NCBI GenBank assembly: GCA_951799405.1
Contig: OX637342.1
Coordinates: 17,469,298 to 17,533,297 of the forward strand
DNA: 64,000 nucleotides
Direction of reading: 5' to 3'
From: Agapetus fuscipes
Lineage: Eukaryota > Arthropoda > Insecta > Trichoptera > Glossosomatidae
Positions within the stretch are counted from its first letter, which is position 1, and every line of letters starts with the position of its first letter. Of the stretch, positions 2,074 to 62,093 are shown piece after piece. The position numbers and the translations under genes were made by a program. Under the pieces are notes generated by a model. The model did not search any database and was not told where the DNA came from. It saw nothing but the letters and a program-made list of their open reading frames with translations.

Positions 2074-2192
2074 GTCAACGACGTTAGCCATGTTGAAAGC
2101 ACCGGTTCCCATAGATCACCGAAGTTAAGCAACATTGGGCGTGGTCAGTGCTTGGATGGGTAACCGCTCAGGTACACCGCGTGTCGTTGGCA
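2074..2192 (+). pseudogene. 5S rRNA-derived SINE head
   Basis: The segment is ~119 bp, the size of a full 5S rRNA. Signature stretches are gatcaccgaagttaagcaac and tgcttggatgggtaaccgct, which cover the box A and box C internal promoter regions of 5S genes. The 3' end reads cgttggcat and pairs with gtcaacg at the start, as in the 5S terminal stem. It continues without a T-run terminator into a tRNA-like unit, so it is a SINE promoter, not a working rRNA gene. Confidence 0.85.
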
Positions 2193-25976: not shown

Positions 25977-28489
25977 TAAGGTGGATCGCTGTATGTATGG
26001 AAAAAATTAAAAATCATTTTTTCGTAATTGCGTTGTGCAGAACAGTTGCTCTATGGGGTGAGTATCTGATTTAAAAAAAAATCTTATCAAAATATTAATT
26101 AGTTATACTGCCCCAAGTCATCAGAAAAATAAAAAAAATACATAAAACTACTCATTTTTACCCCTGTGTTTAAGAATCAAGAATAAGATAAAATCAAACG
26201 AAATAAAATTTTGTTTCTTTAAAATGAATGAAATAGTTATTATTACGTGTTGGTATCTTGTTATTTGAGAGGGGTGGGTGGGGGCACCCCCTAACTTTGT
26301 TACTCCGCGCAGACGCGCGTCACCAATTCGGTGCTCTCAGAGATGTAACTATAGTTGTACGCTACTCATATTTTTTGCGCATACAAATTTGCGAGAGATC
26401 CTTAGTGTATTTTTGATATATCAGCGTGTTAATGCAACAGATTGGCTTCATTTAACTATGAAAAAAATCTTAAAGTACCGATAACTGAAAAATATTCTGA
26501 TTGATCAAAGAACCAAAAGATAAATGATCATAAGGAGTGTTGATTTGAAAACTGCTGCGGGAAATTAAAAAAAAGCTGAACCGGAAACAGAAATATGAAC
26601 CATACGAAGAAAAAGCTACAAGTTTATTGCCAAATCTGTCTGACCTATGAACTGATGTCTCTCAACAGTAATAGAAAAACTAGCACTTCAGAGAATGCTA
26701 CCTCAAACTTCGTATTCATATTCATTAAAAAATATTGACCTTGGCATACTGGAAACACCTGTGGATCAATTTGGCATTTCCAATAAGGCTGAAGCTGCTC
26801 TTGTTTTGGCAACAAAGCGTTGGTATTATTTCAGACAACAATTCATCCAAAGTTTTCGATCAAAATAAAATTAGAAGAGTCCGTGAAAAGTAGAGAACTA
26901 AGTTCAGCGGTGTGACCATTGATTCTAAATACTAAGATTTGGGTTTATACTTTGATGGACGTAAAAATAAAACCTTTAATATGGTGGATCATAAGAGAAA
27001 TATAATTAAAGAGGAGCATATTAGTTACTTAAGGACGCAAGGTCACAGTACATTGGTCATATTTCTTTAAGCACTGATAAAGCAGCAATAATAACAAGAA
27101 AAATTATGGATATTTTAATCAGTAAAGATATCAATGACATCCTTTTTGCTGGAATCGGACGTGATAGAACTATCGTTAATACAGATGAAATTGGTAAATT
27201 TATTCCAAAAAAAATAAAATATCTAGTAAAACCGCTGCAGTGGTGTATTTGTCAACTCCATGCCGACAAACTGCCGCGCCAATTATTTGAATATACTGAT
27301 GGTTGTACAAGTGGACCAATAAGTTACTCTGAACCCATAAAAAAGGTATTAAAAAGTTGTGAAGAGCTTCCAATAGTCTCGCTTCTAACTATCCAATGTG
27401 ATCTACCTATTGGACGAAGAATAACTATAAAGTCTGGATATTGTTCTCAAAGCTTATTAAAAAGAAACCCTGGAAAACTAGTGCATTCAAGATGGCTCAC
27501 AGAATACTACGGCTTTATGTTCTTTTTTTTAACCAACTGGCAAGCTGTTAATATTATCAATTATAAAATGGAAGTGGATGCTCTTATGTGGTCTTACATC
27601 AAAACTAACCACATTGCATTAATGGTGCTAGACACTTACACAAGACAATCTAGCTGTCGCGATATTTGACAGATAATTTAAAGCAGATACTACATCCTGT
27701 TATAAAAGAAATGGATATTTCAATCATACAAAATACATCTTACTTGCTTTGCCTTTTTATGAGTTCTAGCCTTGTGAAGAATATTGAAACGCGACAGGAA
27801 ACAATTTTGAGAATTCGAACTACGATTGGCCAAAACTTGATTTTGATGCAAACAATTATAAAAAACCTTATAAACTGGCACGAAAATAATGTGACCAAGC
27901 CCCTTGTTACAAAATTTATGAACGGTGAATTAACATCACGTTGTTAAGAAAATCCACTGCTTGTTGACGAACTAATCTCAAGCCATTTCCATTTTCCTTG
28001 CTACACGTTAGCCACTGAAAGATTAGTAAAAATTGTAACAGAAACTTCAGCTGCTGTTTGCGGTCTGATCAAAAGAGATGGATTCATTAAAACAAACTTG
28101 GAATCACGACAAATAATGTTTTTTTTTCAATTTAAAGAAAGATTACCAATTCTCTTAAAATCACTTTTTTCTAGACTTCTGTTGATTGCCATTTTTTCAT
28201 ATTTTTTGCCATAAAAGGGTCTTTTTTCTCTCATTTATAGAAAATCATGCTTTGTGCTTAAATTTGAACTTCATTATACTTCAATTATTTTTTTCTTAAT
28301 AAACAAAAAAAAAAATTAAGTATATAGCAGTTTTTATGATTTTTATTAACTTTTCGAGTCTTTGGGGCAGTATAAGATCAAATATTTCGACCTTATGATG
28401 GTATAATTTATTGTTTGTATTGATATAGAGCAGCTTTTGGTTATAACGCGAAATTGAAATTCCCAAAAAAACGATTTCGATCCACCTTA
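25977..28489 (+). mobile_element. DNA transposon, 12-bp TIR, 8-bp TSD
   Basis: The left tip TAAGGTGGATCG (25,977-25,988) is repeated inverted as CGATCCACCTTA (28,478-28,489). Both are flanked by the identical 8-mer GCCTGCAA (25,969-25,976 and 28,490-28,497). Imperfect symmetry extends further inside: tgctctat at ~70 bp and tatactgcccca at ~115-127 bp from each end. An 8-bp duplication fits the hAT or P superfamily, and the TAAGGTGG tip is reminiscent of part of the P-element TIR, but the superfamily is not settled. The decayed gene inside reads in the plus direction. Confidence 0.85.
26690..28120 (+). pseudogene. Decayed transposase-like gene
   Basis: Recognisable blocks, in order: NKIRRVREK (~26,870), LYFDGRKNKTF (~26,950), IKEEHISYL (~27,010), RDRTIVNTDEIG, LQWCICQLHADKLPRQLFEY, TDGCTSGPISYSEPI (27,106-27,669), then in a shifted frame HPVIKEMDIS ... 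(from 27,666), an in-frame TAA at 27,945, and FPCYTLATERLVKIVTE, VCGLIKRDGF up to ~28,110. I recognise these blocks from a repetitive, otherwise unnamed protein family of arthropods. The two conserved Asp positions (FDGRK, and the GCDGT-like GRDRT) suggest an RNase H-like DDE core; that is an inference. At least one frameshift and one stop make it non-functional. Confidence 0.7.
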
Positions 28490-32260: not shown

Positions 32261-33727
32261 CTAATCTAATCTAATCTAATCTAAGTTGCAAGGATATGTT
32301 ACATTGAAGATTCACATTACATGCATTCTCACAACCAGACACGTACAAGTTCGCGCTTGCACATGCCTCATGTGAACCTACAACATAAAAATCAATATCT
32401 CAAATGGACATACACCCTGCAACTCTTGCCGTCCTTCCCTGAGACAGGGGTGACATTGGCAAAGTGAACCATTTTTACAGCATGGGTGGTCAGCCGCATA
32501 CCAACCTATAAGTCAAGGAACACACACACACGACAAATTACATTTTATACATCATTAAATAATAATATTCAAATACAAAATATCCATTTACAAACAAAAA
32601 CAAATTCCAATTTAATAAACCCTATTCGCCAACATTACAGATCAACCGCCATTTCTTTCTGTCCTTACATACTTCTTTCATTTCCTCCAGAGTCATAACC
32701 TTCTTCATACAAGCTCTTCTTTTATTATGACTCTGGATATTCCATTCATTCGCAATTTCGGATATTTGGTCCATCCATACCTTTCTCGGTCTTCCTCTAC
32801 CACGACATCCATCTATTCTACCAACATATACTTTCTTCGTCAGTCTTTCCTCATTCATTCTCTCCATATGCCCAAACCATCTTAACAAACTTCTTTTAAT
32901 CTTCACTTTCACACTTTCTCTTGCACCACATTCTTCTCTAACAAAATCATTCCTCACCCTGTCACTCCGTTTTTTCCCAATCATACTTCTTAGAAAGTCC
33001 ATTTCAACAGTATGGACTTTACTAATTTCACTTTCATTCACCGTCCAGGCCTCGCTTCCATACATCAAGGTGGGTAAAAGTATGCCACTGCGTACCGCCA
33101 ATCGAGCATTTTTTGATATGTTTTGATTTTTGGCGATACAAGCTGTGGCACCCAGTACACACCTGCCCTTCATTACTCTTCTTTCAAATTCACCGGTCAT
33201 TCTTCCATCTTTTTCAAACTTACTTCCCAGGTATACAAACTCATTTACGACATCAACATTCATTCCATTAATTTTAAATTCATAATTCATACTTTCATCA
33301 TCTCTTTCAAAAATCAATACTTTCGTCTTACTTGCATTCAACTTCAGATGGTTACCTAACAAAGCTTCATTCAATCTAGAGAGCATTGTTTGCAATTCTA
33401 CTGCTGAATCAGATACAAGAACTGCATCATCTGCATACAGTAGAACACTCACTTTGCTCTCTCCTATCATCAATCCACAATCATTAAGTCTAGCATCTCT
33501 GACACACTTGTCCATGACTATGTTAAATAGCCATGGACTCATCACACATCCTTGCCTCACACCCTTATAAACTTCAAACCACTCGCTATACTCACCATCA
33601 ATACGAACACATGCCTTACTATTTTCATAGTTGGCATGCACCGCACCTAGGAGAGCCCCATTCACTCCGTATGCTTTCAAAACATCCCATAACATACCTC
33701 TGTCTACTGAGTCAAAAGCCTTTTCCA
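32261..33727 (-). mobile_element. LINE1, 5'-truncated, with family A as its 3' end
   Basis: The insertion is flanked by the 8-mer GAAATGAT on both sides (32,253-32,260 and 33,728-33,735), so everything between arrived in one event. On the minus strand it holds a reverse-transcriptase C-terminal half, a short 3' UTR (~32,620-32,520) and then a complete family A block ending in (GATTA)n. This proves that family A is the 3' terminus of this LINE. The clade is uncertain (CR1/L2/RTE-like range). Confidence 0.9.
32622..33727 (-). pseudogene. LINE1 reverse transcriptase, C-terminal half
   Basis: The frame is open for ~368 codons. It starts in the finger/palm region (EKAFDSVDRGMLWDVLKAYG) and passes the conserved YKGVRQGCVMSPWLFNI block. 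It then shows the catalytic LLYADDAVLVSD box, followed by the thumb and the connector motifs PTLMYGSEAWTVNE, LLRWFGHMERMNEERL and GRGRPRKVW, ending DRKKWRLICNVGE. The endonuclease and N-terminal palm are missing through 5' truncation at 33,727, so it cannot be autonomous, but the remaining frame has no stops, which suggests a young insertion. Confidence 0.9.
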
Positions 33728-33739
33728 GAAATGATGAAA

Positions 33740-34000
33740 AACAAAACAAGTTATGGCGTTATTCATCAATGTCAAACTTTAAACTGCTCTCCTGAGCAAT
33801 TTAGTTTTGGTCGGCTATGCCCCATTGCCTTTTAACCGTCGATATTTTTAACACATCTTTGATACATGATTCCCAAACTTTTTTTAAATCATTTAATTTT
33901 GTTGTGTTTTAAGTGTGTAAGTGAGTGTCGTTCAAACCAAAATGGATGAAACAATAATCCACTCATACAAGGAAACTGGTTGAAAAAAAAAAATCTGCAT
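33740..34000. other. Spacer upstream of the SLC16 exon
   Basis: AT-rich, no motif recognised. If the SLC16 exon is a first coding exon, its promoter or 5' UTR intron would lie here or further left. Confidence 0.35.
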
Positions 34001-56569: not shown

Positions 56570-56986
56570 ATATTAGGATGATTTATTTGGTGAGCGCTGT
56601 TTTCGTGTGTATCACACCTCAAGAGCCCTCTGCGAGCTTGGTCGTCGCTGTAGAAAGCGCCAATTCTCAAGCAAGACCCAGTTGTTGTAAGGTTGGATGG
56701 ACCTTTCAGTGACCGGTCATTGGTAAAGGTTTATGAATTTTTCAACTCAGCGAAGAGCACATTCGTAATATAAATGGCACATTTTTTGTGCTCCGCCGGG
56801 ATCCGAATCCACAACCTTCCACTTACGAGTCCGAAGTGTTGCCACTGGACTACGGACCGGTCCAAGATGCCAACGACACGCGGTGTATCTGAACGGTCAC
56901 CCATCCAAGAAGCATTCGCGCCCAATGTTGCTTAACTTCGGTGATCTGATGAGAACCGGTGCTTTCAACATGGTATCGTCGTTGAC
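56570..56986 (-). repeat. Chimeric 5S rRNA-tRNA SINE B with tail type 1
   Basis: From the right on the minus strand: 5S-like head (56,986-56,868), linker tcttgga, tRNA-like head (56,862-56,790; box B tggattcggatcccgg), body, and tail type 1 ending caccaaataaatcatcctaa. Together with the 2.07 kb copy it shows that 5S heads occur with both tail types. Confidence 0.9.
56868..56986 (-). pseudogene. 5S rRNA-derived SINE head
   Basis: The minus strand contains gatcaccgaagttaagcaac and cttggatgggtgaccgttc, closer to a genuine 5S than the 2.07 kb head (it keeps ctcatcagatcacc). It has no terminator and runs on into the tRNA-like unit. Confidence 0.88.
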
Positions 56987-57720: not shown

Positions 57721-57875
57721 TTCTTGTCGTTCATTTTGCCAATGCCACCTCTGCTTTAGGATAGTTCGTCAAGAGTTGCAGGGCTCATGTTCATTTGAGA
57801 TTGAGTTATTATGTTGTAAGGTCACATGCAAACTTATTCTTATAGGAATGCATGTAATTTGAACATTAATTGTAT

Positions 57876-58329
57876 TGTTACGTTTTTCCTGGGTTCTTTT
57901 AATTAAAACACAAGTTTAACACAAGTTAGCCATACAGTTTATTTACACAGACTTTCTTACAATAGATTTATTTTAACAGACTTATTCTAACAGATTTATT
58001 TTAACACACTTATTTATTTCGCACAGATTACATTTATTTTACACCATATTGGTCGCCCTAGTAACTAGATATTCCACTGTGTGAGTGCTTCGAAAGACTG
58101 ACTCGCTTCAGCCGATTGTCGCCCTTCTTATAGCGGAACCTAGGGGCCATTCCAGCCTGCCCTAGAAGGTTCCACTACCACAGTTGTATAGACGGTTCTG
58201 GACATATTTATTTCATGAAGAGTCCATGTCCTACCTACATACACACCTTACAATTACAATCGTCTGGGCCAAAACATTCTCTCAAAACACACGTACACCA
58301 ATAAACATCTACCAGTGTATTTCGTTACA
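57876..58329 (-). repeat. 3' LTR
   Basis: 454 bp, 3' with respect to the minus-strand element. It differs from its partner by about six substitutions and no indels that I can see. Confidence 0.92.
58127..58132 (-). promoter_or_regulatory. LTR TATA box (3' LTR copy)
   Basis: TATAAG on the minus strand, followed 33 bases later by an AGTCAGTC initiator-like word. The same pair is at 60,631-60,636 in the 5' LTR and, with the same spacing, near 10.45 kb. Confidence 0.6.
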
Positions 58330-58342
58330 TTATCCCCCCCTT
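58330..58342 (-). promoter_or_regulatory. Polypurine tract
   Basis: The minus strand reads aagggggggataa immediately before the LTR. The stop codon of the SAP-DEK frame (TAA, 58,332-58,330) is its last triplet. Confidence 0.8.
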
Positions 58343-60027
58343 AGACTGTTCCGCCCCGGAACAGTCTTTTCTTTAAGAAGGTACGGGCAGTTTGACCCAC
58401 AGTTGCATCCAGTGGTCAGGAAAAATGACGTTCCACGAAATTTTCCCCTTAGGGTTTTGCCCGTCATTGCTGGCTGGTGTGGGGGGGGGTGCTTTCCTCT
58501 TGGCGGCCGGCATGGGCGCCTTTCCTTGGCTGGGGGCACCGCTTTGCGTCCCCGGGCGGCCACCGCTCCTAGGCCCCGCTTGCTCGCCGGCGTCAAAGGA
58601 TCAGAATCCTTGGTCGTCGGAGCCGCTCTCCTGCTCGGAAGCGAAGTTCTCACTCTCGCTCTAGTCCTCTGACTCGCTGAGTGGCTTCCTGCCGCGCCAT
58701 GCTTGGGTCGTCCCTTCTGCTTGCTCTGCTTGGCTGAGCCCCTGCGGGCGGGGGCGCGGCGCCTGCGGGAGGGAGCGCCCCCCTCCCCCACTGACGGGTC
58801 AAAGTCAGAGTCCGCCTCCTGTCCGGAGCCACTCGGGTTGTACGAGCCATCTAAATCCCCTAATTCATCCCTGCTGACTTTGGGTCCCCGCACTTTGGTT
58901 TCCGGATCTGTTTCATACTCCTCGTTAGAGTAACCTCTCTTGACAATAGCAGCAGCGGACCTTCTGGGCCTGCCTCCCGTGGCCTCGCCGCGGTCAGTCA
59001 CCGGCCTCTCCTTCATCAGCCCCCTGGCGTGCGAGGAGACCTGCTTTGGCAGCAGCAGGAAGCCCATTACCCTGCTGACCAGCTCCGTGGGCGCGCCCCT
59101 CTTGTCCAAGCCCAGCTTCTCGCACAGCGTCCGCAGCTGCTTGGGCTCCAGCTTCTGCACCTCCTCCAGCTTGGCCTTGTGCTCAGGCGTGTCCTTCTCA
59201 AACTCGTAGCCCTTGAACTTCTTTTTGTTGCGCTTGATGAGGTTCGTGCGGCACAATTGATTGTACCGGAACTTGAGGTCCTCCATCTTGAACCTGGAGA
59301 TGGCCACCTCCACGTCGGGGATGTGGTCGATGGGGATGCCCCGGCCCGCGGGCACGGGCACCGGCGGCTCCACGGCCTTCTTCTTCTTGGGAGCCTCCTC
59401 CACGGCCTCCTCCGCCTTCTTCTTGGGCGCGGGCTTCTTCTTCACACTGTTGGCCTTCTTGGCCTTGCCCTTCTTGTCCTTGGCGTCCTCATCCTCCTCC
59501 TCCTCCGTCTCCTCCTTCGCATCCTTGTCAGCCTTCACCTCGGCCGAGTCACTCTTGCCGTTTTCAGCCGACTTGACATCATCTTTGTCATCTTTGCTGT
59601 CAGCTGCGTCCTCAGCCTTGAGCTGGCCGTTGTTTTTGGCCTTCAGGTCTCCCTTCCCCAACTTCTGAGACGACTCATCTTCAGTTGACATATCGGCCTT
59701 TTTGTCATCCTGATTATCACTTAATTTTACACTATCAGTGTCCGCCGACATTTTTAAGGCTAGGTTTTTAGCCCTCTCCTCCTTCCAACCAGCTAGGTCT
59801 TCCCTCAAGCTCTTGAAGTTGGCAGCCATCTTTGTTTTAAACTCTTCCACGGCTCGATCCCCTCCAGACGCCATGACAAAATATGCCGGGTCTTCGCCTG
59901 ACTGTTCCAAGGCCTCCATGAGGCGTGCTTGTAAGGCCGCCTTCCCTCCTGAGGTCTCCAGGTCCCTCTCCAGAAGCTCATTCTTAAGCTCATAGGCTTT
60001 GAGGTCCTTGATGTTCACCTTAGCCAT
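58330..60027 (-). CDS. Dek: SAP-DEK fusion protein in an LTR element
   Basis: 565 residues. Residues ~6-40 form a SAP domain (LETSGGKAALQARL core), followed by a short basic/coiled stretch. A probable native DEK start (MSADTDSV) is at residue 93. Residues ~105-220 are acidic and Lys-rich (EETEEEEDEDAKDKKGK, KKKPAPKKK). Residues ~237-328 hold the conserved DEK core with its SAP-like DNA-binding fold (LCEKLGLDKRGAPTELVSR, MGFLLLPK). RPRRSAAAIVKRGY follows at ~353. DEK is a nuclear chromatin-architecture protein that binds DNA and histones. From about residue 443 the frame differs from what looks like the native acidic tail (another frame reads KPLSESED then SESENFASEQESGSDDQ), and the C-terminal DEK_C domain is absent; residues ~522-565 are retroelement 3' sequence (GRNSLRGG next to the polypurine tract). 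No introns, so it derives from a cDNA. The N-terminal SAP part may come from the element's gag; that is an inference. Confidence 0.82.
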   Translation of the reverse strand: MAKVNIKDLKAYELKNELLERDLETSGGKAALQARLMEALEQSGEDPAYFVMASGGDRAVEEFKTKMAANFKSLREDLAGWKEERAKNLALKMSADTDSVKLSDNQDDKKADMSTEDESSQKLGKGDLKAKNNGQLKAEDAADSKDDKDDVKSAENGKSDSAEVKADKDAKEETEEEEDEDAKDKKGKAKKANSVKKKPAPKKKAEEAVEEAPKKKKAVEPPVPVPAGRGIPIDHIPDVEVAISRFKMEDLKFRYNQLCRTNLIKRNKKKFKGYEFEKDTPEHKAKLEEVQKLEPKQLRTLCEKLGLDKRGAPTELVSRVMGFLLLPKQVSSHARGLMKERPVTDRGEATGGRPRRSAAAIVKRGYSNEEYETDPETKVRGPKVSRDELGDLDGSYNPSGSGQEADSDFDPSVGEGGAPSRRRRAPARRGSAKQSKQKGRPKHGAAGSHSASQRTRARVRTSLPSRRAAPTTKDSDPLTPASKRGLGAVAARGRKAVPPAKERRPCRPPRGKHPPPHQPAMTGKTLRGKFRGTSFFLTTGCNCGSNCPYLLKEKTVPGRNSLRGG

Positions 60028-60363
60028 TTTTTTATTTTAACAAAAATTTAAATTTACTTCAAAACAAATTATTTTACAAAAAAAAATATTTTTAAATTTC
60101 AAATAATGATATTAGATAATGATTATTTACTTTGCTTCGTCAGATCGGCTAGCTTTACTAACACTAGCACAATATTATTAACACGTTATCTATGCACACT
60201 TCAATCAAATTTTTAGCGGGTAACCACACGATCGTTTTTAATTCAAGTTTAATCAGTTTTATTTAAAACTTTTTTTTTTTTTATTCATTAGTTTTTATTA
60301 TGTTGTCCAGAAATATTTTTCAATAGTCTTAAGCACAGATTTTTTTGGTACTTGGTTTTAAAT
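60028..60363 (-). other. 5' leader of the LTR element
   Basis: AT-rich, about 335 bp between the primer-binding site and the ATG of the SAP-DEK frame. No ORF or packaging signal could be recognised. Confidence 0.5.
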
Positions 60364-60378
60364 CTCACACCGACACCA
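60364..60378 (-). promoter_or_regulatory. Primer-binding site
   Basis: The minus strand reads TGGTGTCGGTGTGAG one base after the 5' LTR. It starts TGG, complementary to the CCA end of a tRNA; the tRNA species was not identified. Confidence 0.7.
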
Positions 60379-60379
60379 T

Positions 60380-60833
60380 TGTTACGTTTTTCCTGGGTTC
60401 TTTTAATTAAAACACAAGTTTAACACAAGTTAGCCTTACAGTTTATTTACACAGACTTTCTTACAATAGATTTATTTTAACAGACTTATTCTAACAGATT
60501 TATTTTAACACACTTATTTATTTCGCACAGATTACATTTATTTTACACCATATTGGTCGTCCTAGTAAATAGATATTCCACTGTGTGAGTGCTTCGAAAG
60601 ACTGACTCGCTTCAGCCGATTGTCGCCCTTCTTATAGCGGAACCTAGGGGCCATTCTAGCCTGCCCTAGAAGGTTCCACTACCACAGTTGTATAGACGGT
60701 TCTGGACATATTTATTTCATGAAGAGTCCATTTCCTACCTACATACACACCTTACAATTACAATCGTCTGGGCCAGAACATTCTCTCAAAACACACGTAC
60801 ACCAATAAACATCTACCAGTGTATTTCGTTACA
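60380..60833 (-). promoter_or_regulatory. 5' LTR with promoter
   Basis: 454 bp. Minus-strand TATAAG at 60,636-60,631 and initiator AGTCAGTC with its A at 60,603 should drive transcription into the SAP-DEK frame. Confidence 0.85.
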
Positions 60834-60862
60834 GTATCATAATTTTGCAACTTAGATTATAG

Positions 60863-61280: not shown

Positions 61281-61374
61281 TTTTTTAAATAGATTTGTGA
61301 AGAGGAATACAATTTCCCAACCTATTTTACCTTGCTAGAAATAGATATTAACATTTTCTAATTATTATTCGTTA

Positions 61375-62093
61375 AACACATGGATTTATCCATTTTAATA
61401 ATAATACATATCTTTGCATACTTGGGAAGTATGTTTGAGAAGAATGGAAAGATGACAAGAGAACTTGAGAATAGGGTGTGTAAGGGCAAGCAAGTGGTCG
61501 GTGCAATAGGAAGAATAGCAAAGAACAAGCGATTGACGATGGATCTGAGAATGGCGGTACACAATGGCATATTGTTACCGACTTTGATGTATGGAAGTGA
61601 AGCATGGACAGTGAACGATAGCGAAATGAGTAAAGTATGTACGGTGGAAATGAAGCATTTGAGAAGCATGACAGGAAAAACTCTGAGGGATAGAGTTAGG
61701 AACGAATGGGTAAAAAAAGAATGTAATTTGAAAGAGGATGTAAAAGTTAAAGTACAAAATAATGTGATGAGATGGTTTGGGCATGTGGAAAGAATGAATG
61801 ATGACAGATTGACAAAGTATGTATACAAAGAAAGTGTAAAAGGAAAAAGAGGGAAGGGACGACCGAGAAAAGTATGGAGTGATCAGATTGAGGAGATTGT
61901 GAAAGAATGGGATATACAAAGTGAGCGTAAAAGAAGAAAATGCATGAAAAAGGTGATGGATATGAAGGAATTGAAAGAGGTATGTCAGGATAGGAAAAAA
62001 TGGAGGCAACTCTGCAGAGGCTCTGGCCACCCCTAGCGGAATGGCGACAGAGTTACAGTTACAGTTACAGTTTTGCAACTTAGATTAGATTAG
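61375..62093 (+). mobile_element. LINE2 insertion ending in a LINE1-type tail
   Basis: Flanked by the 8-mer ATTCGTTA (61,367-61,374 and 62,094-62,101). After the LINE2 stop and its own tail (agttacagttacagttacag) the insertion ends ttttgcaacttagattagat, the terminal ~25 bases of LINE1/family A. The insertion is thus a LINE2-LINE1 chimera that integrated as one unit. Confidence 0.8.
61420..62036 (+). pseudogene. LINE2 reverse transcriptase C-terminus
   Basis: Open for ~205 codons: YLGSMFEKNGKMTRELENRV, GILLPTLMYGSEAWTVND, VMRWFGHVERMNDDRLTKYV, GKGRPRKVWSDQIEEIVKEW and KEVCQDRKKWRQLCRGSGHP. Same layout as LINE1 at 32.6-33.7 kb but a distinct subfamily. The catalytic domain is missing through 5' truncation. 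Confidence 0.88.

What the first reader, a model, noticed from the sequence alone, without database searches (positions are those of the whole stretch)
57876..60833. A young LTR retrotransposon that carries a DEK chromatin gene instead of gag-pol
Paired 454-bp LTRs differing at about six positions, a GTAT target duplication, a primer-binding site, a polypurine tract and an LTR promoter are all on the minus strand, in the same orientation as a 565-codon frame encoding a DEK core. LTR elements that transduce host genes are known (retroviral oncogenes, maize Bs1), but I know of none carrying DEK. If expressed, it could supply a shortened chromatin protein from a mobile promoter.
Basis: partly seen in the sequence, partly recalled or inferred. 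Interest (0 to 1): 0.92.

Follow-up and report, generated by a model that had tools for sequence, protein, structure and literature searches.

The report
Jumping gene carrying captured DEK gene
A retrovirus-like jumping gene in an insect, probably a moth, has captured the spliced message of the host's DEK chromatin gene, fused it to the start of its own coat-protein gene, and copied the fusion around the genome, with many copies looking brand-new.

Summary
"DEK instead of gag-pol" needs correction: the frame is a gag-DEK fusion. Codons 2-61 are 57 of 60 identical to the SAP-domain start of a gag in the same genome; DEK begins at codon 93. The parental DEK gene, with introns, lies on contig C11; the element carries its spliced cDNA (92-95% nucleotide identity in 7 of 9 exons) without the DEK_C domain. 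The window copy belongs to a large family: 77 of 77 scored places match at 97% protein identity or more, 73 without a stop (ranked by likeness); 33 of 37 LTR pairs have no mismatch. Parent and copies differ with Ks about 0.14, Ka/Ks 0.18-0.26: capture is old, mobility recent, constraint on the frame likely but not proven (within-family test not significant). Precedents exist (maize Bs1, Parnassius RPLP2 chimeras, Plutella Pxyfem). A new variant of a known kind: a long-lived gag-host fusion that looks still mobile. Protein function is untested.

The parts
57872..57875 (.). target-site duplication GTAT (left)
   Evidence: 35 of 37 family pairs have equal 4-bp duplications, all 35 with central TA
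57876..58329 (-). 3' LTR, 454 bp
58334..58342 (-). polypurine tract AAGGGGGGG
58344..58366 (-). perfect 10-bp stem with 3-base loop just before the polypurine tract (GACTGTTCCG GGG CGGAACAGTC)
   Evidence: read directly; function unknown
58330..58473 (-). 3' end after the DEK breakpoint, taken as element-derived; its first 3 bases (CCA) are shared with the next parental exon, its first 10-12 bases are not found in the 19.8 kb parental stretch; holds the end and stop of the fused frame
58474..59758 (-). captured DEK cDNA: from 7 bases before the DEK ATG (59751) to the end of a parental exon; introns absent; frame shifts and small deletions in the tail; DEK_C domain absent
59752..60027 (-). 5' part of the frame, codons 1-92, SAP domain at codons 6-41; codons 2-61 are 57 of 60 identical to a gag in the same genome, codons 62-92 only weakly matched
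58330..60027 (-). gag-DEK frame, 565 codons plus a TAA that abuts the 3' LTR
60028..60379 (-). A+T-rich 5' leader (24% GC); about 100 bp shorter than in 25 of the 36 other frame-bearing or broken copies listed (10 others are as short or shorter; L011 not comparable)
60362..60378 (-). primer-binding-site-like TGGTGTCGGTGTGAGAT, tRNA not identified
60380..60833 (-). 5' LTR with TATAA (60632-60636) and TCAGT (60601-60605)
60834..60837 (.). target-site duplication GTAT (right)

Best explanation
This is one copy of a high-copy, non-autonomous LTR retrotransposon family whose only long frame is a gag-DEK fusion. Inferred steps: (1) during reverse transcription in a particle of a SAP-gag LTR element, reverse transcriptase switched between element RNA and a spliced DEK mRNA, once near the DEK start codon and once about 3 bases beyond an exon junction, leaving LTRs, PBS, leader, gag start and polypurine tract from the element and DEK without its last exons between them; (2) the chimera is transcribed from its LTR and mobilised in trans by gag-pol of related elements; (3) the fused frame has been kept largely open since capture, so a nuclear, DNA-binding gag-DEK protein (two SAP-like modules) is probably made at least at times and may help the element reach or stay on chromatin. 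Shown: fusion structure, intron loss, parental gene, a many-copy family with mostly identical LTR pairs, related gag elements. Inferred: mechanism of capture, trans-mobilisation, protein production and its role. The confidence given is for the structure, origin and steps 1-2; for step 3 it is about one half.
For: LTR, duplication and frame. Gag origin of codons 2-61: 57 of 60 residues identical to a gag with SAP, Retrotrans_gag, zinc knuckle and a following protease frame; leader plus gag start 87-91.5% identical at nucleotide level in 8 of 8 gag loci. Parental DEK gene with exons separated by introns on C11, spliced junctions reproduced in the element. The DEK_C search of the genome gives 3 places, one taken as the last exon of this gene (96-98% to moth DEKs over 51-53 residues), none in an element; none in the window frame. 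Family: 77 of 77 scored of 2725 first-look candidates (window copy included) match at 97% or more, 73 without internal stop, but ranked by protein likeness. 37 complete LTR pairs in 42 loci; 33 with no mismatch. Copies chosen by LTR likeness: 12 read, 10 complete, 9 of these 10 with a frame of 550-572 codons from the gag ATG. Parent versus 16 copies: Ka/Ks 0.18-0.26; 27 synonymous against 20 non-synonymous codons, p 1.6e-7 against equal rates, no transition bias allowed for.
Against: Within the family the frame is not clearly constrained: in 10 LTR-chosen-plus-window frames, codons 1-330, omega is 0.57-0.68, p 0.06-0.14. Polarised replacement changes fall mainly on the element (11 element, 2 parent, 7 unresolved of 20), several at residues the compared moths share; a 4-residue deletion lies in a stretch conserved in parent, moths and human, and the tail is read out of the DEK frame for stretches: signs of relaxed constraint. 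Parent-element Ka/Ks cannot exclude a neutral element if a quarter or less of Ks lies on its branch. No autonomous element with the same LTR was found: 0 of 8 gag 5' ends examined share the DEK-element LTR beyond its last bases. No RNA or protein data.
Confidence: 0.85

Rival explanations
1. Passenger only: the DEK part is cargo without function. Packaging and priming signals in LTRs, leader and gag start suffice for trans-mobilisation; the frame looks intact because sampled copies are very young and were partly chosen by likeness.
For: 33 of 37 LTR pairs without mismatch, so little time to decay; within-family omega 0.57-0.68 not significantly below 1 in the LTR-chosen set; changes at conserved DEK residues and out-of-frame tail.
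Against: Capture is old (Ks about 0.14) yet the frame over about 340 compared codons is open, and replacement changes are about half of the neutral expectation if Ks is split evenly (26 seen, 53.5 expected, P 2e-5); with all 36 frames, protein-chosen ones included, omega is 0.48-0.56, p 0.002-0.012.
Confidence: 0.45
2. Capture through read-through and splicing, as proposed for retroviral oncogenes (recalled), rather than template switching in a mature mRNA.
For: Both breakpoints lie close to DEK exon boundaries: homology begins at CTTAAAAATG, a few bases after a possible splice acceptor, and ends at ACACCAG(CCA) at an exon junction.
Against: CCA of the next exon is shared, as a switch in mature mRNA with short homology could give; the element's LTR has no match in the 19.8 kb of the parental locus that was read.
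Confidence: 0.25
3. The element captured DEK in another species and entered this genome by horizontal transfer, which would put most synonymous changes between two native DEK genes and mimic constraint on the element.
For: Low Ka/Ks with Ks 0.14 would also arise this way; the sampled copies are very recent.
Against: The copies are far closer to this genome's DEK (94-95% nucleotide identity) than either is to the three moths compared (55-60% protein identity), and relatives of the leader and gag are abundant in the same genome. Neither excludes transfer from a near relative.
Confidence: 0.15
4. Solo LTRs around the only, native DEK gene, or assembly artefact.
For: None found.
Against: Separate parental gene with introns on another contig; equal target duplications at 35 of 37 elements on many contigs.
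Confidence: 0.01

Closest known systems
Parnassius glacialis RPLP2 gypsy chimeras (PMC10713551, passages read)
   Same: Butterfly gypsy LTR element carrying a processed host gene, amplified to hundreds of copies (433 processed pseudogenes, 381 likely in one gypsy family); the paper reports mean Ka/Ks 0.36 and a few expressed copies
   Different: There described as pseudogenes showing intron absence, start loss or early stops, with 5' LTRs generally shorter than 3' LTRs; here equal, mostly identical LTRs, a gag fusion and a mostly open frame of about 565 codons
Maize Bs1 (PMC13317346 and PMC5408686, passages read)
   Same: LTR element with transduced host-gene segments giving a chimeric frame
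   Different: Plant; segments of three genes; here one chromatin gene over most of its coding length
Plutella xylostella Pxyfem (PMC9674220, passages read)
   Same: Moth mRNA next to gag fragments, explained by LTR-element template switching
   Different: Pxyfem lies in W-linked arrays, its LTRs could not be identified, and it acts through small RNAs; here complete dispersed elements
LTR-mediated retroposition of Tan et al. 2016 (paper not held; seen only as cited in PMC9674220, PMC5408686 and PMC10713551)
   Same: Template switching between LTR-element RNA and mRNA
   Different: As cited, a route to retrocopies; here the chimera itself became a propagating family
Gag-oncogene transducing retroviruses (recalled)
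   Same: gag start fused to host coding sequence, helper needed
   Different: Insect genomic retrotransposon family; no env seen in the element

Membership tests
LTR retrotransposon | paired LTRs with TG...CA ends and target-site duplication | tested here: met
LTR retrotransposon | primer-binding site and polypurine tract | tested here: inconclusive
   PPT clear; PBS-like site at the right place and similar in 8 of 8 gag loci, tRNA not identified
LTR retrotransposon | own gag-pol (autonomous) | tested here: not met
   only long frame is gag start plus DEK; the element is non-autonomous
Ty3/gypsy lineage of the gag donor | Retrotrans_gag, CCHC knuckle, aspartic protease | tested here: met
   one locus (L051)
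Ty3/gypsy lineage of the gag donor | reverse transcriptase and integrase order in pol | not tested
   an 1880-codon open frame exists at C33:22143721 but letters could not be fetched
Transduced host gene (processed mRNA inside an LTR element) | parental gene with introns, introns absent in the copy | tested here: met
Transduced host gene (processed mRNA inside an LTR element) | element sequence on both sides of the host segment, no poly(A) tract at its end | tested here: met
   gag on the 5' side; PPT and LTR on the 3' side; junction bases read
DEK protein family | DEK core including SAP | tested here: met
DEK protein family | C-terminal DEK_C domain | tested here: not met
   absent by Pfam; the exon taken as the parental last exon has it

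The most novel reading that the evidence does not exclude
The captured DEK is no passenger: gag-DEK is a working protein of the element. A SAP-tipped gag fragment joined to the DEK chromatin-binding core tethers or shields the element's nucleic acid on chromatin, or blunts silencing, and selection on that protein has kept the frame open since capture while the family expanded.
Probability: 0.3. Interest if true: 0.95.

Novelty: new variant of a known kind. Interest (0 to 1): 0.78.

Why it matters
Host-gene capture by LTR elements is mostly known from broken or single copies. Here the parent gene, the gag donor lineage, the chimera and many apparently recent copies sit in one genome, so one can test whether a retroelement keeps a stolen chromatin gene because it helps the element. 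It also gives the host dozens of possible sources (77 scored places; probably hundreds, an extrapolation) of LTR-driven truncated DEK and of DEK-matching RNA.

Tried and rejected
Rejected: unrelated solo LTRs around the native gene (parent is elsewhere); DEK 'instead of' gag; the idea that low identity to moth DEKs proves long residence in the element. I first suspected the last because the element is 59-62% identical to moth DEKs that are 81-90% identical among themselves, but with human DEK as outgroup 4 columns have the element equal to human and all five moths different (9 the other way), and the parental gene itself carries those four residues.

Led nowhere: viral-contig scans with P0007, the gag part and the DEK alignment found no relative; genome-contig scan none; protein search for longer relatives of residues 1-97 none, and the earlier one for residues 1-100 gave one gag fragment, P0007, 47% over 75 residues; structure prediction poor (mean pLDDT 52.5), so no fold search was run. 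An early neutral simulation on 221 codons against the moth consensus gave 0 stops seen, 3.5-4 expected, P about 0.02-0.03; superseded by the parent comparison, since the moths are not the parent.

Rows dropped: L011 (broken frame) from all codon counts; copy L009 has a shifted frame that misaligns codons 331 onward, and those figures are not used; one search uses 16 of the 36 aligned frames, namely 9 of the 10 LTR-chosen-plus-window frames (L009 dropped) and 7 of 26 protein-chosen ones, picked by me without a rule; in it the alignment of the acidic repeats is partly arbitrary. Copies chosen by LTR were the pairs visible in the list (six) and the last six single hits of that list.

Papers: PMC9674220, PMC11675541, PMC5408686, PMC13317346 and PMC10713551 were seen as passages found by terms; others only as listings. 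Searches for such an element. The one paper holding DEK, retrotransposon and Lepidoptera is about homeobox genes; no listing named a DEK-carrying element. Most subscription papers are not held, so this is weak evidence of absence.
Full report
What is there. The window holds a complete LTR element on the minus strand: 5' LTR 60380-60833, 3' LTR 57876-58329, each 454 bp, six mismatches, no gaps, flanked by GTAT. Leader, gag-DEK frame of 565 codons plus stop, a hairpin and a polypurine tract lie between them. No other copy was found in the window.

The frame is a fusion. Pfam finds a SAP domain at its start, and PDB chains named Protein DEK (human, recalled) match codons 169-344. Against moth DEKs the start codon of DEK is codon 93 of the frame. 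Codons 2-61 are 57 of 60 identical to a gag frame in the same genome that continues with repeated coiled-coil-like units, Retrotrans_gag, a CCHC knuckle and, in the next frame, an aspartic protease. The 5' leader and gag start are 87-91.5% identical in all 8 gag loci compared; the LTR end plus PBS-like site are recognisably related in 8 of 8 by pattern, but the rest of the LTR is not found by BLAST. Codons 62-92 match that gag only weakly, so their origin is less certain.

The parent. A DEK_C search of the whole genome (618 Mb, 148 contigs) gives three places; one, on C11, is 96-98% identical to moth DEK C-termini over 51-53 residues and is taken as the last exon of the native gene; of the other two, L053 matched DEK only through acidic repeats and L054 not at all in that comparison. 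Upstream on C11, same strand, nine exons match the element: seven at 92-95% nucleotide identity, two acidic-repeat exons at 76% and 81% where the element has deletions; introns lie between them that the element lacks. Homology starts seven bases before the DEK start codon and ends at an exon end plus three bases of the next exon, CCA. The element therefore holds spliced DEK cDNA without the last exons.

The family. The LTR finds 1094 first-look candidates; the 40 scored are all 98% identical or more. The frame finds 2725 candidates; 77 were scored (window copy included), all 77 at 97% or more, 73 without an internal stop. That list is ranked by protein likeness, so the share of intact frames is biased upward, and candidates need not be separate copies. 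Of 42 loci read (L009-L050), 37 have both LTRs complete, 33 of these without a mismatch (three of the 33 have gap columns); 35 of 37 have equal 4-bp duplications, all 35 with TA in the middle, against a TA frequency of 8% in the window. The window copy is the most diverged pair. Of 12 places chosen by LTR likeness only, 10 are complete elements and 9 of these 10 have a frame of 550-572 codons from the gag ATG, one does not; the other two (L045, L048) showed a single LTR. These 12 are the nearest to the window's LTR, so they are not a random sample of the family either.

Age and selection. Parent against 16 copies: Ks 0.137-0.160, Ka 0.029-0.038, Ka/Ks 0.18-0.26; where the family majority differs from the parent, 27 codons are synonymous and 20 not, p 1.6e-7 against equal rates. 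If Ks is split evenly, a neutral element branch should show 53.5 replacement changes, against 26 seen in all between parent and a typical copy (P 2e-5); if a third of Ks lies on the element, 35.9 (P 0.05); if a quarter, 27.4 and no signal. Of the 20 replacement differences, 11 are on the element, 2 on the parent, 7 unresolved. Within the family, codons 1-330, constraint is not significant in the 10 LTR-chosen-plus-window frames (omega 0.57-0.68, p 0.06-0.14); in all 36 frames, 26 of them protein-chosen, it is 0.48-0.56, p 0.002-0.012. The fair reading is a frame under partial or past constraint, not a fully preserved DEK: a 4-residue deletion sits in a conserved stretch and the tail is read out of the DEK frame in places.

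Host. The five named relatives of the frame are from moths and butterflies (only Scirpophaga was looked up, the others are recalled). The parental DEK is only 57-60% identical to three of them over 335-386 residues, although the exon taken as its last is 96-98% identical. At four core columns the element and its parent agree with human DEK against all five sampled moths, so the host may branch off before the sampled moths; no tool named the species.

How it most likely works. Template switching between element RNA and DEK mRNA, then trans-mobilisation by gag-pol relatives, of which many gag frames exist (94 of 1715 candidates scored; all but 4 of 137 match rows list no stop). Both steps are inferred; no element with the same LTR and its own pol was found among the 8 gag 5' ends examined. 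Capture by read-through and splicing is not excluded because both breakpoints lie close to exon boundaries.

Against what is known. Passages read in PMC10713551 describe 433 processed RPLP2 pseudogenes in Parnassius glacialis, 381 likely within a gypsy family, with mean Ka/Ks 0.36 and a few expressed copies: the nearest precedent. PMC9674220 describes Masc retrocopies next to gag fragments in Plutella. PMC13317346 and PMC5408686 describe Bs1 and LTR-mediated retroposition. PMC11675541 finds lepidopteran retrocopies mediated mainly by non-LTR elements; its main text does not hold the word DEK. The present case differs by complete equal LTRs, a gag fusion, a mostly open long frame, an old capture and very recent copies.

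Noticed in passing
window 56868-56986 (-) and 2074-2192 (+): Two full-length 5S rRNA-like matches (82 and 77 bits), 54 kb apart and inverted; 5S genes or a 5S-derived SINE.
   Followed up: no
window 32622-33758 (-) and 61362-62036 (+): Non-LTR retrotransposon-like frames; the first has RVT_1, the second looks like a related C-terminal part by eye but gave no significant Pfam match.
   Followed up: partly
   Followed up: no
G000, gag places: Gag copies fall into groups with identical scores on several contigs, suggesting several separate recent bursts of SAP-gag elements.
   Followed up: no
L014 (G000:C6:20505000-20510300) and L013 (G000:C14:15518900-15522900): Insertions of about 1.7 kb and 0.26 kb, relative to other copies, in the leader of gag-DEK copies whose LTRs show no mismatch.
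   Followed up: no
window 27025-27669 (+): A 214-codon frame without a Pfam match.
   Followed up: no
gag of L051 (G000:C22) and P0007: SAP domain followed by repeated coiled-coil-like units of variable number at the start of an insect gag; a search for SAP domain, Gag and retrotransposon gave one unrelated paper.
   Followed up: partly
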